Assembly (NCBI RefSeq): GCF_003925875.1
Contig: NZ_AP019309.1
Span: 682,001-746,000, forward strand
Reading direction: 5' to 3'
DNA length: 64,000 nucleotides
DNA from: Intestinibaculum porci
Lineage (GTDB): Bacteria > Bacillota_I > Bacilli_A > Erysipelotrichales > Coprobacillaceae
The notes below the pieces were generated by a model that did no database searches, was not told the DNA's origin, and worked only from the letters and a program-made list of their open reading frames with translations. Position numbers and translations under genes: made by a program. Below are positions 16,623 to 21,299 of this stretch, one piece after another (within the stretch, counting starts at the first letter, position 1; each line of letters opens with the position of its first letter).

Positions 16623-17760
16623 ATGGTTTTGAAAAATGCTTTGTTAAGCATTAAAAAGAGCATCGGGAAGTCATTACTTCTCTTGGTGATTATGGCTTTA
16701 ATTGCGAACCTGGTATTAGCCGGCTTAGCGATTAAAAAGGCAACGGAAAAATCAATGGCGCAGGTGCGTAGCTCAATGGGAGCCACGGTGACATTATCTT
16801 ATAACATGCAGAAATTAATGCAAAATCGCAAGAAAGGGGCTTCCATGGCTTCTGTTATGAAGGCGATGAAGATGTCTACCGCGGATCAGTTAAAGCATCT
16901 GAAATATGTCCAAAGCTATAACTATAGCACTTCTGTAGGGGTGAATTCATCTTCCATTGATCCTGTAAAAGTATCAAATTCATCATCATCTAATACCCAG
17001 CAAGGAACATCGCCAGGGAAAGCAAGGTCATCTGGTAGTGCCCAAAATAAAATGACTGAAACATCATTTAGTGTTTCTGGGAATACGACGATGAAAAAAA
17101 TCTCTTCGTTCACTAATGGCAGTTACAAACTCATCAGTGGTCGTTTGTTAAATAGCAATGATGATGGCAAGAATTATGCAGTCATCTCGTCGGCATTAGC
17201 GAGTGATAACGACTTAAAGGTTGGTTCGTCATTTAAAGTGTATTCGACAACTTCTTCTGGAAAGAAGACATATGTCACTTTAAAAGTTATCGGTATTTAT
17301 AAAATTCAATCTTCAAGTGCATCAATGGATAATATGTCTGATCGCCAGAATCCTTATAACACGATTTATACACCATTAAAAACAGCGCAGACATTAAATC
17401 ATTCAACCACAACGATTACGAGTGCAACGTATTATCTTGATGATCCCGCCCATACTTCTGCCTTCGCTAAATTAGCGAAGAAAACTTCGATTAACTGGAA
17501 TACCTATGCGCTGCAGACCAGTGATGAAGCTTATGAAGCGAGTGTCTCTTCTTTAAAGAACATGGAGAAATTCGCCAATATCTTCTTAGTTGTCGTCATC
17601 GCGGCGGGGGCGATTATTCTGGCTTTCATTCTTATTTTAACTTTACGTTCTCGTTTCTATGAATTTGGTGTGTTCTTATCTTTAGGGGAATCAAAAGCCG
17701 CTATTATTGCCCAGCAGTTAGTGGAAGTCGGCCTGATTGCGGTGCTTGCCTTTATGTTAT
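16623..17760 (+). pseudogene. MacB/FtsX-type ABC permease, 5' part (split by IS200/IS605 element)
   Basis: The first 379 codons of an ABC permease. Transmembrane helix 1 lies at about 15-40, then a large extracytoplasmic Ser/Thr/Lys-rich domain (about 45-320) and TM2 (about 325-350, VVVIAAGAIILAFILILTL). TM3 begins in VEVGLIAVLAFML. The frame stops at once inside the inserted element. Joining 17760 to 20306 restores the reading frame and yields a 484-residue permease ending SPRQILMKKEG, as is usual for the family. Together with the ATPase at 20625 it would form a macrolide/lipoprotein-type exporter. A GGAGGA site precedes the start. Confidence 0.88.
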
Positions 17761-17765
17761 AAATC

Positions 17766-17808
17766 AGCGGCGAAAACCCCACGGCTTGCCGTGGGGATGA
17801 AAGCCGCT
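17766..17808 (+). repeat. Left-end hairpin of the IS200/IS605 element, terminator-like
   Basis: Inner 9-bp arms CCCCACGGC/GCCGTGGGG are enclosed by outer arms AGCGGC (17766-17771) and GCCGCT (17803-17808). Eight T follow, so this end may also stop transcription arriving from the permease. Confidence 0.8.
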
Positions 17809-17821
17809 TTTTTTTATGATT

Positions 17822-17853
17822 TTGTAGACAGAAACATAGATAGGATATATAAT
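17822..17853 (+). promoter_or_regulatory. Promoter of the IS200/IS605 operon
   Basis: TTGTAG (17822-17827) with TATATA (17846-17851, spacer 18) or the overlapping TATAAT (17848-17853, spacer 20), ahead of an AAGGAGG site. Confidence 0.45.
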
Positions 17854-17878
17854 ATAGATAGATTAAGGAGGATATGCT

Positions 17879-18058
17879 ATGTCTAAATCAAAAAACGTTC
17901 AGGTTAATATATCAATTCCCAAAGAATGGAAGGACGAGCTTGAAAATATTGCTCGCATCTATTCAGTTGAAGAAGGAAAGAAGGTAACTTTTCTTGAGCT
18001 GATGCGAAGAGGCATTCAGGAAAAGTACCAGCTTGGTGATCCTGATGAGAAACGGTGA
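17879..18058 (+). CDS. Small ribbon-helix-helix-like protein of the IS element
   Basis: A 59-residue ORF starting MSKSKNVQVNISIPKEW after an AAGGAGGAT site. The N-terminal strand VQVNISIP followed by two helices (EWKDELENIARIY and TFLELMRRGIQEKY) fits a ribbon-helix-helix DNA-binding fold. It is the first gene of the element and overlaps tnpA by 14 bases. I infer that it controls expression of the operon or assists transposition; neither is shown. It is not part of the minimal IS605 design. Confidence 0.65.
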   Translation: MSKSKNVQVNISIPKEWKDELENIARIYSVEEGKKVTFLELMRRGIQEKYQLGDPDEKR

Positions 18059-18476
18059 TCAGTATCACAGCGCAGCACACTGCCGGTATCTGACACAGTA
18101 CCATATTATATGGTGCCCAAAATTCAGATATTCAGTGCTCGGCGATGAAGCCGGAGACATGCTCAAGAAAATACTTGCAGACATTTGCAGCAGATACAGC
18201 TACAGCATTAAAGCGCTGGAAGTCATGCCTGACCACATTCATATTTTTGTGGACTGCCCCCAGACTGTAGCGCCGTGCGACATAGTCAGAACCCTCAAAT
18301 CATTAAGTGCAGTTGAAATGTTCAGAGCCTTTCCCAAACTGAAGCGTTTTTATGCGAAATGCGGGAAACTGTGGTCTGACGGATATTTTATATCAACTGT
18401 CGGTCATATAAGCGAAACGACGGTTCAGAAATATATAGAGGAGCAGAAGAGCCATGAGAGAAAGAAAGAAATGTAA
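18045..18476 (+). CDS. tnpA: Y1 HUH transposase TnpA (IS200/IS605)
   Basis: With ATG at 18045 the protein is 143 residues, the usual size. The HUH metal motif is H64-I-H66 (PDHIHIFVD) and the catalytic tyrosine is Y130 in TVQKYIEEQ. It excises and inserts single-stranded DNA by recognising end hairpins. A TTG at 18033 in the same frame is a possible alternative start. It overlaps the RHH ORF by 14 bases and tnpB by 23 bases, so translation is probably coupled. No damage is seen. Confidence 0.95.
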   Translation: MRNGDQYHSAAHCRYLTQYHIIWCPKFRYSVLGDEAGDMLKKILADICSRYSYSIKALEVMPDHIHIFVDCPQTVAPCDIVRTLKSLSAVEMFRAFPKLKRFYAKCGKLWSDGYFISTVGHISETTVQKYIEEQKSHERKKEM

Positions 18477-20076
18477 GCTGACAGATTACCAAAAGCAGCT
18501 GCGCCAGTACCATAAAAACTCGCCAAGACACGTTCTTGTCCTTGAGGCGGATATCCCCTACCAGGACAGATGCAGAATTTTTCACTATGCTGATCTTGTG
18601 CGCAAAGCCGGCAACGAACTTGTCGGAATTATGAAAAATAATCTTGAGCAGCTGACACGCACAAAGAAATACAGATATTTCAACAGGGAATATGGGAAAT
18701 GCAAGGCGGCTGAAGACGAGGACGGTCTTAAGGCTGCTGCCAAAAAGCTAAAGGAGCTTCAGCAGTCATATAATGTTACATTTGACTTCTGCAGAAAGGC
18801 TATGGTTCCTCTTGATAATAAGTATGGCATTGATGCAGTATTCGGACTCACAAAAGCCGAGGATGTGTGGCGCGGAGTTGAAAAATGCCTGTATTCAGGT
18901 GGAAAAGACATTCACTTTTCAAAGCGTGGGGATCTTCCATGCATCAGAGCAAAACAGATTAACAGAGGCATCATCATGAAAGCGAGGGAAGACTCTCTGA
19001 CATTTTCGTTTCATGGAATGACATTTGGCGTTCTGGTAAAGGACAGATTCGAAAGCGATGAAGTCAGCGCTGTTCTTTCGTACATGAACGATCCTGAAGC
19101 CAGCGACAGAGCTGCAGTCAGCGCGATGAATGCTTCCGGCGAAATTATCAGCACATATAGACCGTGTTACGTATCTTTGTCATGCTCAGTCATCAGAGGA
19201 AAAATGAGAGTCTTCGTTCACATAACAATCGAAGGCAGATCCGTTACAAAATACAACAGATTCGGATGCAGAAGACATAAGCTGGGACATGGCGTTGTAG
19301 GATGTGACATCGGCACTCAGACAATTGCCTATACATCTGATACTGAAGTTGGTCTTAGGAATCTTGCCGAAAGAGGCTCTTCTGTCTCAGAGAATGAAAG
19401 AAAAGAGCGTCTGCTCCTTCGCTCAATGGATAGGTCGAAAAGAGCTACGAATCCTGACAACTACAACGCTGACGGCACGATCAGAAAAGGGCCCAAGAAA
19501 TGGAAGTTCTCCCGCAGATATATGAAGCTGAAAGCAAAGCATACCGAGCTCTGCCGCATCAATGCGGTTAACAGGCATCTTGCTATTAACGAGGAGGTTA
19601 ATCATCTGAGAAGCCTAGGTGATATCTTTGTAACAGAGCCGAAGAACACGAAGAAGCTTCAGAAGCGCTCCACAAAGGATGGCACAGATAAAAACGGCAG
19701 ATGCACCAGAAAGAAGCGGTTTGGAAAGTCTGTTAAGAACAGATGCCCCGGCTATTTTCAGACGCAGGCAGAACAAAAGTTTGCCTGCTATATAGAAGTT
19801 CCTAATAACTATCGTGCAAGCCAGTACGATCACACATCAGACAGCTATATTAAAAAAGAGCTGTCGCAGCGCATGTACAGTCTTTCGGACGGAACGGCTG
19901 TTCAGAGAGACTGGTATTCCTCATATCTGCTCTACAGTATTGATACTGTGAACATGACGATTGACAAATCAAAATGCATTACTGGATTCAGTGACAAGTA
20001 CGCAAAGGAACGTGCTATGATCAGCTGGATTATAAAGAATAAGATTCGGGTGTTGAACAGCGGAATAAGATTTTAG
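18454..20076 (+). CDS. tnpB: TnpB-like RNA-guided nuclease lacking the zinc ribbon
   Basis: At 540 residues it is longer than common TnpB (about 350-450). RuvC-like residues are D285 in VVGCDIGTQT, E395 in FVTEPKN and D486 in VQRDWYSSYLL. The region between E395 and D486, which in most TnpB holds two CxxC pairs, instead reads RASQYDHTSD and KKELSQRMYSLSDG with no such cysteines. I recall a similar pattern in a group of OrfB proteins, so this is probably a subfamily rather than decay. The N-terminal 270 residues are helical and basic, as for a guide-RNA/target recognition lobe. It should cut DNA guided by an RNA from the 3' end of the element. Confidence 0.88.
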   Translation: MRERKKCKLTDYQKQLRQYHKNSPRHVLVLEADIPYQDRCRIFHYADLVRKAGNELVGIMKNNLEQLTRTKKYRYFNREYGKCKAAEDEDGLKAAAKKLKELQQSYNVTFDFCRKAMVPLDNKYGIDAVFGLTKAEDVWRGVEKCLYSGGKDIHFSKRGDLPCIRAKQINRGIIMKAREDSLTFSFHGMTFGVLVKDRFESDEVSAVLSYMNDPEASDRAAVSAMNASGEIISTYRPCYVSLSCSVIRGKMRVFVHITIEGRSVTKYNRFGCRRHKLGHGVVGCDIGTQTIAYTSDTEVGLRNLAERGSSVSENERKERLLLRSMDRSKRATNPDNYNADGTIRKGPKKWKFSRRYMKLKAKHTELCRINAVNRHLAINEEVNHLRSLGDIFVTEPKNTKKLQKRSTKDGTDKNGRCTRKKRFGKSVKNRCPGYFQTQAEQKFACYIEVPNNYRASQYDHTSDSYIKKELSQRMYSLSDGTAVQRDWYSSYLLYSIDTVNMTIDKSKCITGFSDKYAKERAMISWIIKNKIRVLNSGIRF

Positions 20077-20305
20077 AGATGTTCAGTTCAGTGCCGAGGG
20101 GAACCTGACTGCGTTTCCCGTGTGAAAGCACAAAGACGGCCGATAATGTGTCCAGTGGGATGCTTGACCGTCAGGTTAGCTGCTCCGGCAGAAAGACAGA
20201 TGTGCTGAAGTCCGCACTGTTTCCTTCGCGAAATAGTGCCGTGCGATTGTACGCCTTCTGCAGAATGCCGCCAGAGAACCCCCACGGCTTGCCGTGGGGA
20301 GCAGT
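20077..20305 (+). ncRNA. Putative TnpB omega-RNA (reRNA) scaffold
   Basis: The 229 bases from the tnpB stop to the right end have no gene, are GC-rich and contain several complementary blocks, ending in the right-end hairpin. In studied TnpB systems this segment is the RNA scaffold and the guide is the DNA immediately beyond the right end. Here the guide would begin CAGCACTAGG at 20306, inside the permease gene. The RNA itself is inferred, and its 5' end may lie within tnpB. Confidence 0.6.
20280..20299 (+). repeat. Right-end hairpin of the IS200/IS605 element
   Basis: Same 20-base hairpin as at 17777-17796, six bases before the inferred right boundary. Confidence 0.85.
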
Positions 20306-20622
20306 CAGCACTAGGAACTGGCAAGATGGTAGCCAACAGCATTTCCTCAATGCTCACAAGTACCTCTACTCAGACAACCGTTTCTGCCTCTTCATCACAG
20401 AAAGGCCCATCTGGTCCGGGCGCTCAAGGCGGTCCTGGCCGGATGATGCAAAATGCCATGACTTCTCCAACGAATAAGCAGTTAGATGTCTCTGTGAGTG
20501 CTTCGGTCATTGGTGAATTAGCTGGTGTCAGTTGCGCCATCTGTCTGCTTTCGATCGCTGTGCCATCTAGCTATATCTTACGTCTGTCACCACGACAAAT
20601 TTTAATGAAGAAGGAGGGCTAA
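20306..20622 (+). pseudogene. MacB/FtsX-type ABC permease, 3' part
   Basis: The remaining 105 codons of the permease split at 17760. They encode the rest of TM3, a Gln/Gly/Pro/Ser-rich loop (SSSQKGPSGPGAQGGPG), TM4 (about ELAGVSCAICLLSIAVPSSYIL) and the cytoplasmic end SPRQILMKKEG. The part shows no further lesions. Its stop lies two bases before the ATPase start codon, so the original genes were coupled. Precise excision of the element would restore the full gene. Confidence 0.88.
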
Positions 20623-20624
20623 AG

Positions 20625-21299
20625 ATGAGTTTATTAACGTTTAAAGATGTCAGCTATTATTATCAGGATGGCAGAAAACGTGTCGATATTCTAAGTCAGG
20701 CCAACTATCGCTTTGAAAAAGGAAAAACGTATGCCATTGTTGGTGCTTCGGGCAGCGGAAAAACAACGTCGATTTCATTAGCAGGCGGCCTTGATGTGCC
20801 TAAAGAAGGAGAGATTCTTTATCAGGATCAGTCTTTAAAAAAGATTGGTCTTAATAAATATCGACGTCAGAATGTCTCTATTGTCTTCCAGTCTTATAAT
20901 CTGATTACGTATATGAATGCGTGTCAGAATGTCGTCAATGCGATGGAGATTGCCCATATCCAGGAAAGTCATAAAAAGCAGAAAGCGTTGGATATTCTGG
21001 CAAGCTTAGGTTTAAGCAAAGAGGAAGCAACGCGTGATATCCGCAAGTTATCTGGCGGTCAGCAGCAGCGTATTGCCATTGCCAGGGCGATCGCGAAAGA
21101 TGTTGCTTTGATTCTTTGTGATGAACCAACTGGTAACTTAGATCAGGATACATCAAAAGGTATAATAGATACCTTTATCCAGTTAGCACATGAACACAAT
21201 AAATGTGTCATCATTGTCACGCATGATCCCCAGTTAGCTCGACAAATGGATCACTCTCTTGCTATTCAAAATGGTCAATTGGTTGAAACTGTCTCTTAA
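20625..21299 (+). CDS. ABC transporter ATP-binding protein (MacB/LolD type)
   Basis: The 224-residue ATPase has Walker A GASGSGKT at 40-47, a Q-loop in VFQSYNL, signature LSGGQ at 142-146, Walker B ALILCDE at 161-167 and the H-loop H200. It belongs to the FtsE/LolD/MacB class that pairs with FtsX-like permeases. Its partner is the interrupted gene at 16623-20622. With the IS in place the complex cannot form unless the insertion is excised or another permease is used. A GGAGG site lies in the end of the permease gene. Confidence 0.95.
   Translation: MSLLTFKDVSYYYQDGRKRVDILSQANYRFEKGKTYAIVGASGSGKTTSISLAGGLDVPKEGEILYQDQSLKKIGLNKYRRQNVSIVFQSYNLITYMNACQNVVNAMEIAHIQESHKKQKALDILASLGLSKEEATRDIRKLSGGQQQRIAIARAIAKDVALILCDEPTGNLDQDTSKGIIDTFIQLAHEHNKCVIIVTHDPQLARQMDHSLAIQNGQLVETVS

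What the first reader, a model, noticed from the sequence alone, without database searches (positions are those of the whole stretch)
18454..20305. Long TnpB that keeps a D-E-D triad but has no zinc-ribbon cysteines
Seen: D285, E395 and D486 in RuvC-like contexts, no CxxC pairs between E395 and D486, a SQYDH...KKELSQR...DG..VQRD pattern instead, and 540 residues. Known: most TnpB proteins carry a four-cysteine ribbon before the last aspartate. Inferred: this is a distinct TnpB group with a replaced ribbon, possibly with different RNA or target needs. The intact tnpA and matching end hairpins argue against a dead copy.
Basis: partly seen in the sequence, partly recalled or inferred. Interest (0 to 1): 0.7.

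Follow-up and report, generated by a model that had tools for sequence, protein, structure and literature searches.

The report
Zinc-free TnpB clade, catalytically intact
This is a complete jumping gene whose RNA-guided DNA cutter (TnpB) has lost the zinc-binding knot most of its relatives have, yet shows every sequence sign of still working; the loss is shared by a whole widespread branch of the family, so it is a real variant of a known machine and not a broken copy.

Summary
Window 18454-20076 encodes a 540-aa TnpB with RuvC residues D285, E395 and D486. It has no CxxC between E395 and D486, and carries SQYDH...KKELSQR...DG..VQRD instead. It sits in an intact IS200/IS605 element at exactly 17761-20308: tnpA, tnpB and identical end hairpins, inserted after GTTAT in an FtsX-type permease gene. 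The loss is clade-level. Family members from several bacterial phyla share S456, Q457, H460 and the D-E-D triad, and nearly all lack the four cysteines. A few relatives in the same family keep a full CHxC...CxC ribbon in the same frame. Those are not one clade (AU p=0.001), so the cysteines changed more than once. The AlphaFold model (pLDDT 89) matches TnpB structures (Z 18). dN/dS is about 0.08. The 3' end carries a covarying reRNA with a loop-to-terminus pseudoknot, also found in distant relatives. Most likely it is a working RNA-guided nuclease with TAM GTTAT whose DNA-loading (TNB) module folds without zinc. Ribbon-less TnpBs exist elsewhere (N[AS]DxN type, even in this genome), so this is a new variant of a known kind, invisible to Pfam and NCBIfam. 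Cleavage is untested.

The parts
17756..17760 (+). GTTAT, target retained at the left end, predicted TAM
   Evidence: 15 of 16 left ends in related elements are preceded by GTTAT, one by GATAT
17761..20308 (+). whole IS200/IS605 element, 2548 bp
   Evidence: Second copy, 99% identical, at another site. Joined flanks align without indel across the junction in five relatives
17777..17796 (+). left subterminal hairpin
   Evidence: covarying hairpin in relatives
17879..18058 (+). small ORF, 59 aa, ribbon-helix-helix-like by eye, overlapping the tnpA start
   Evidence: Found by tblastn at 64-92% identity in about 20 related elements; no significant Pfam or NCBIfam hit
18045..18476 (+). tnpA, Y1 HUH transposase
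   Evidence: Pfam Y1_Tnp 1.2e-35; NCBIfam transpos_IS200 2.4e-40
18454..20076 (+). tnpB, 540 aa, RuvC D285/E395/D486, no zinc ribbon
19819..19911 (+). codons for S456-D486: cysteine-less TNB segment plus catalytic RD
20098..20121 (+). reRNA P1 hairpin GGGGAA...TTTCCC (approximate); its loop holds CTGACTG
   Evidence: covariation in A2
20280..20299 (+). right subterminal hairpin, last stem of the reRNA scaffold
20302..20308 (+). terminal CAGTCAG, pairs with the P1 loop (pseudoknot); end of element, guide starts next
   Evidence: 7 pairs, 97.9% of cells paired, compensatory changes; same geometry in distant relatives
20309..20328 (+). predicted natural guide CACTAGGAACTGGCAAGATG; length assumed about 16-20 nt by analogy
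   Evidence: first flanking base after the mapped right end; guide position inferred from known TnpB systems

Best explanation
This is an intact IS200/IS605 element whose TnpB belongs to a large family with RuvC-III motif QRDxY, most of whose members have lost the four zinc-ribbon cysteines. The protein most likely still works as an RNA-guided DNA endonuclease. It would process the 3' end of its own transcript into a reRNA (P1 hairpin, loop-to-3'-end pseudoknot, right-end hairpin), use the flank after ...CAGTCAG as guide, recognise GTTAT, and cut the empty donor site so that the element is copied back. In place of zinc, the about 29-residue TNB segment keeps its length and its SQ-x-x-H, KK-LS-R and QRD anchors and is predicted as a metal-free beta structure. 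Shown here: element boundaries, triad conservation, clade-level loss, fold match, purifying selection, covarying reRNA, TAM consensus from insertion sites. Inferred: nuclease activity, reRNA processing, metal-free TNB, and the retention role.
For: Triad invariant in all 59 aligned family rows and in 45-row A3. Cys census: 0-1 Cys in 76 TNB segments, 4 in 5 family members, none between. Ribbon-bearing relatives L105, L106, L108, L110 and L045 align in the same frame. AF2 model pLDDT 89.2; VIA-align Z 18.4 to ISFba1 TnpB and 18.2 to ISDra2 TnpB. dN/dS 0.079 to the nearest homologue; 0.13-0.15 among copies whose tnpA carries shared lesions. reRNA: 41 pairs, 98% paired, 23 with changes on both sides against 5.7 in shuffles. 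The same P1-plus-pseudoknot is found in 10 of 33 distant loci, 0 in 60 shuffled sets. GTTAT at insertion sites; exact empty sites.
Against: No cleavage, RNA or metal data exist. The second copy in the same genome has a stop at codon 37 of tnpB. AF2 cannot show metal absence, and TNB confidence is lower than the core (blocks of about 85-89). The helices counted were chosen on the same alignment; one search is the independent check. Low dN/dS shows selection on the protein, not which activity is selected.
Confidence: 0.8

Rival explanations
1. Copy-specific decay: this TnpB lost its ribbon as the first step of pseudogenisation.
For: The second copy, 99% identical, has an in-frame stop; many related elements in G010 are decayed.
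Against: The cysteine-less motif is conserved across several phyla; dN/dS about 0.08; triad invariant.
Confidence: 0.03
2. RNA-guided binder without cutting (TldR- or Cas12m-like): selection acts on RNA-guided DNA binding, and ribbon loss reflects lost target-strand loading.
For: The TNB helps load DNA into RuvC in Cas12 enzymes (PMC10097598); the reRNA is conserved.
Against: D285, E395 and D486 are invariant in all 59 family rows, whereas nuclease-dead relatives lose the triad (own knowledge).
Confidence: 0.1
3. The ribbon is replaced by a different metal site or function: SQ[YF][DN]H with the downstream DG forms a D/N-H metal or DNA contact.
For: H460 is invariant, and D/N sits at the first Cys position in 62 of 67 cysteine-free segments.
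Against: H460 is also present in canonical CHxC ribbons, so it need not be a new ligand; the second pair has no consistent replacement.
Confidence: 0.12
4. The residue called the third catalytic Asp is wrong and the ribbon lies elsewhere in the protein.
For: Identity to solved TnpBs is only 12-14%.
Against: Profile alignment to 8bf8 puts the RD at chain residue 361, the known D361 (PMC10097598); D486 starts helix 485-494 as in the RuvC fold; no CxxC pair lies between E395 and D486.
Confidence: 0.02

Closest known systems
ISDra2 TnpB (8exa, 8h1j) and ISFba1 TnpB (8iaz)
   Same: Fold over residues 22-502 (Z about 18), D-E-D triad, reRNA at the right end with subterminal hairpin, flank used as guide
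   Different: 12-14% identity, 540 aa against about 400, no CCCC zinc finger (ISDra2: C331, C334, C351, C354; PMC10097598), RuvC-III is QRDxY
ISCbt1-type IS200/IS605 TnpB of Clostridioides phages (L039)
   Same: Same QRDxY family, SQYNH...KKEL..RW, no ribbon, 32% identity
   Different: Shorter (about 480 aa), annotated only as transposase; the small upstream ORF was not found there
Derived TnpBs with RuvC-III NADxN (PMC10278001)
   Same: Also lack CxxC in the examples seen here (L119, L121, L178, L179); the class includes orthologues with processed guide RNA (PMC10278001)
   Different: Different RuvC-III motif and different TNB sequence (TSKASF...FSGKR...GLYR)
Ribbon-bearing QRDxY relatives (L105, L106, L108, L110; A. 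caldus L045)
   Same: Same KK.LS.R and QRDLYS frame
   Different: Keep CHxC...CxC (CHC...CSC in L045)
Type V-U2 C2c8 (NCBIfam NF038192)
   Same: Weak similarity to several family members (best 1e-13)
   Different: Window protein itself has no hit; no CRISPR array examined; scores far below the model's cut-off

Membership tests
IS200/IS605 element | Y1 HUH transposase | tested here: met
   Pfam Y1_Tnp 1.2e-35 and NCBIfam transpos_IS200 2.4e-40; HIH and YIEEQ motifs
IS200/IS605 element | Subterminal imperfect palindromes at both ends, no target duplication, insertion 3' of a fixed short target | tested here: met
   hairpins, exact empty sites, GTTAT
TnpB superfamily | RuvC fold with D-E-D | tested here: met
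TnpB superfamily | structured reRNA scaffold running to the right end, guide from the flank | tested here: met
   structure by covariation; the guide itself is inferred, not seen as RNA
TnpB superfamily | RNA-guided DNA cleavage | not testable with these tools
   needs biochemistry
Typical TnpB (DRDxN with CCCC ribbon) | CxxC...CxxC zinc finger in the TNB | tested here: not met
   no paired cysteines between E395 and D486
Typical TnpB (DRDxN with CCCC ribbon) | RuvC-III DRDxN | tested here: not met
   QRDWY; QRDxY in nearly all of the family
Derived TnpB (NADxN) | RuvC-III NADxN | tested here: not met
   QRDWY
NCBIfam NF040570 guided_TnpB | score above the curated cut-off of 100 bits | tested here: not met
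   window protein has no hit; relatives score 69-104 bits
TldR-type nuclease-dead TnpB | loss of RuvC catalytic residues | tested here: not met
   triad invariant

The most novel reading that the evidence does not exclude
Within one TnpB family the zinc ribbon was discarded repeatedly while the rest of the TNB motif and the nuclease were kept, giving a natural series of zinc-bearing and zinc-free RNA-guided nucleases. The zinc-free TNB would load target DNA by a metal-independent mechanism, convergent with the zinc-less Nuc/TNB domains of many Cas12 enzymes, and could alter trans-cleavage or metal sensitivity.
Probability: 0.3. Interest if true: 0.6.

Novelty: new variant of a known kind. Interest (0 to 1): 0.47.

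Why it matters
The family gives matched zinc-bearing and zinc-free TnpBs with the same flanking motifs, so the role of the TNB zinc finger in DNA loading can be tested by comparison. The window's subgroup is missed by Pfam and by NCBIfam's guided_TnpB model, so such nucleases are probably annotated as hypothetical or simply 'transposase'. A predicted TAM, scaffold and guide are in hand for a direct assay.

Tried and rejected
Single-sequence PDB search with the window protein gave only one non-significant LexA hit; the family profile was needed to find TnpBs. Pfam gave no hit to the window protein. Rfam gave one chance hit far below its gathering score. A single-sequence scan of viral contigs found nothing; the profile found 66 loci. 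Decay of this copy and nuclease-dead function were considered and rejected or ranked low. One clade of ribbon-bearers within the family was tested and rejected. LaTranC was considered as a close relative: the profile hit is weak (0.03-0.05) and LaTranC keeps a canonical-looking ribbon in the alignment. The first automatic pseudoknot scan with a 7-bp hairpin rule found only one case, because distant elements have shorter stems; the relaxed scan was checked against shuffles. The PNAS 2023 TnpB/Cas12 classification paper is not held, so whether this branch is already named there could not be checked.

Full report
Observation. The 540-aa ORF, its three acidic residues, the SQYDH...VQRD string and the absence of any CxxC between E395 and D486 are all as described. 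tnpA is open and scores as a Y1/IS200 transposase. Both ends carry the same 20-nt hairpin.

Element boundaries. A second copy, 99% identical, lies elsewhere in the same genome. Comparing flanks, and left and right ends in about 20 relatives, places the element at 17761-20308, after GTTAT and ending in GCAGTCAG. Joining the flanks restores the reading frame of an FtsX-type permease (identified by reading its sequence, not by a family search). Homologous uninterrupted genes in five relatives align across the junction without a gap. Fifteen of sixteen left ends follow GTTAT, one GATAT, which gives the predicted TAM.

Family. Homologues occur in Erysipelotrichaceae, Clostridia, Bacilli and their phages and plasmids, a Mycoplasmatota plasmid, Fusobacteria, Proteobacteria and Cyanobacteria. 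They are patchy: 10 of 296 genomes of the class and 10 of 392 of the phylum. D285, E395, D486, S456 and H460 are invariant in A1 and A3, and Q457 nearly so. In 82 TNB segments (81 of the family plus one canonical), 76 hold no or one cysteine, the five ribbon-bearing family members hold four, and none is intermediate. H460 falls on the His that is common in canonical CHxC ribbons, so it is inherited and not necessarily a new metal ligand.

Tree. With the TNB columns left out, the five ribbon-bearers sit among cysteine-free rows in one branch that also holds the proteobacterial and cyanobacterial members. At least three changes are forced by well-supported branches, and one clade of ribbon-bearers is rejected (AU p 0.0012). 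Parsimony cannot say which changes were losses. Since canonical TnpBs carry the ribbon, repeated loss is the simpler reading, but exchange of the TNB segment by recombination is not excluded. The window's own branch and the firmicute SQYNH branches are uniformly without the ribbon. Some rows (L128, L048, L055) have long branches and their place is unsure.

Structure. AlphaFold2 on A3 gives mean pLDDT 89.2 and pTM 0.76. D285 lies in strand 281-286, E395 directly after strand 391-394, and D486 at the start of helix 485-494. The TNB is short strands. The best VIA-align matches are ISFba1 TnpB (Z 18.4, 363 residues, 3.8 A) and ISDra2 TnpB (Z 18.2), then Cas12f at about 15. Foldseek agrees on the TnpB/Cas12f group.

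Selection. dN/dS to the nearest homologue is 0.079. Among G010 copies that share tnpA lesions it is 0.13-0.15, with tnpB still open. These copies spread or persisted after their tnpA broke while tnpB stayed constrained.

Guide RNA. The last about 200 nt of 20 related elements align (A2). Seven helices, 41 pairs, are 98% paired, and 23 pairs show changes on both sides (shuffled mean 5.7; slid versions at most 5). A P1 hairpin loop (CTGACTG) pairs with the terminal CAGTCAG next to the guide. This is the loop-to-3'-end pseudoknot expected of a TnpB guide RNA (compare the PK structure of PMC10097598; the exact equivalence is my inference). The helices were picked on A2, so an independent check was made on loci only about 30-38% identical in protein. 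The same P1, pseudoknot and end hairpin were found in 10 of 33, with different 7-mers (for example TTGACAC/GTGTCAG and TTGAACC/GGTTCAG), and in none of 60 shuffled sets.

What is known. ISDra2 TnpB has a CCCC zinc finger at C331, C334, C351 and C354 (PMC10097598). A survey divided TnpBs by RuvC-III motif, including DRDxN and NADxN classes, and found guide-RNA processing and cleavage across the tree (PMC10278001). In the present genome family the four N[AS]DxN/NCDxN-type TnpBs inspected also lack CxxC, so ribbon-less TnpBs are not new in themselves. What seems undescribed in the sources available is the QRDxY family, with its repeated ribbon changes and its reRNA. The main classification paper could not be read, so novelty is claimed with caution.

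Verdict. A real, clade-level variant of TnpB that is very probably active. Membership in the TnpB superfamily is filed; membership in the typical, ribbon-bearing TnpB class is not. Metal-free action and altered target handling remain inference.

Noticed in passing
window 17879-18058: A 59-aa ribbon-helix-helix-like ORF overlaps the tnpA start and is conserved upstream of tnpA in about 20 elements of this group. It may be a third, regulatory gene of the element; no significant Pfam or NCBIfam match.
   Followed up: partly
G000:C1:2819929-2822478 (L035): A second element copy, 99% identical, has tnpB codon 37 changed to TAG and a 5-nt deletion just after the stop codon.
   Followed up: yes
G000:C1:2272860-2274390 (L036, L137): A third, about 40% identical, frame-broken relative in the same genome; its TNB reads SQYCHDTGKYVKVPLSQR, with a single Cys at the first ribbon position.
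   Followed up: no
L014, L019, L023, L027 (genome G010): Several copies share tnpA lesions while tnpB stays open under purifying selection, as if TnpB maintains elements that move in trans or not at all.
   Followed up: partly
L119 (G000:C1:965986-967251), L121, L178, L179: TnpBs of the NADxN-like kind without CxxC ribbons in the same genome or family.
   Followed up: partly
window 16623-17760 and 20309-20622: The element interrupts an FtsX-type ABC permease gene; the adjacent ATPase gene (20625-21299) is intact.
   Followed up: partly
L100, L102, L103, L043 against L105, L106, L108, L110: Cysteine-free rows of the mixed branch carry nearly the same SQ[FYL][DNS]H.TG.[YF].K string as the firmicute branch, although they sit among ribbon-bearers. 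Convergence or TNB exchange by recombination; not resolved.
   Followed up: no
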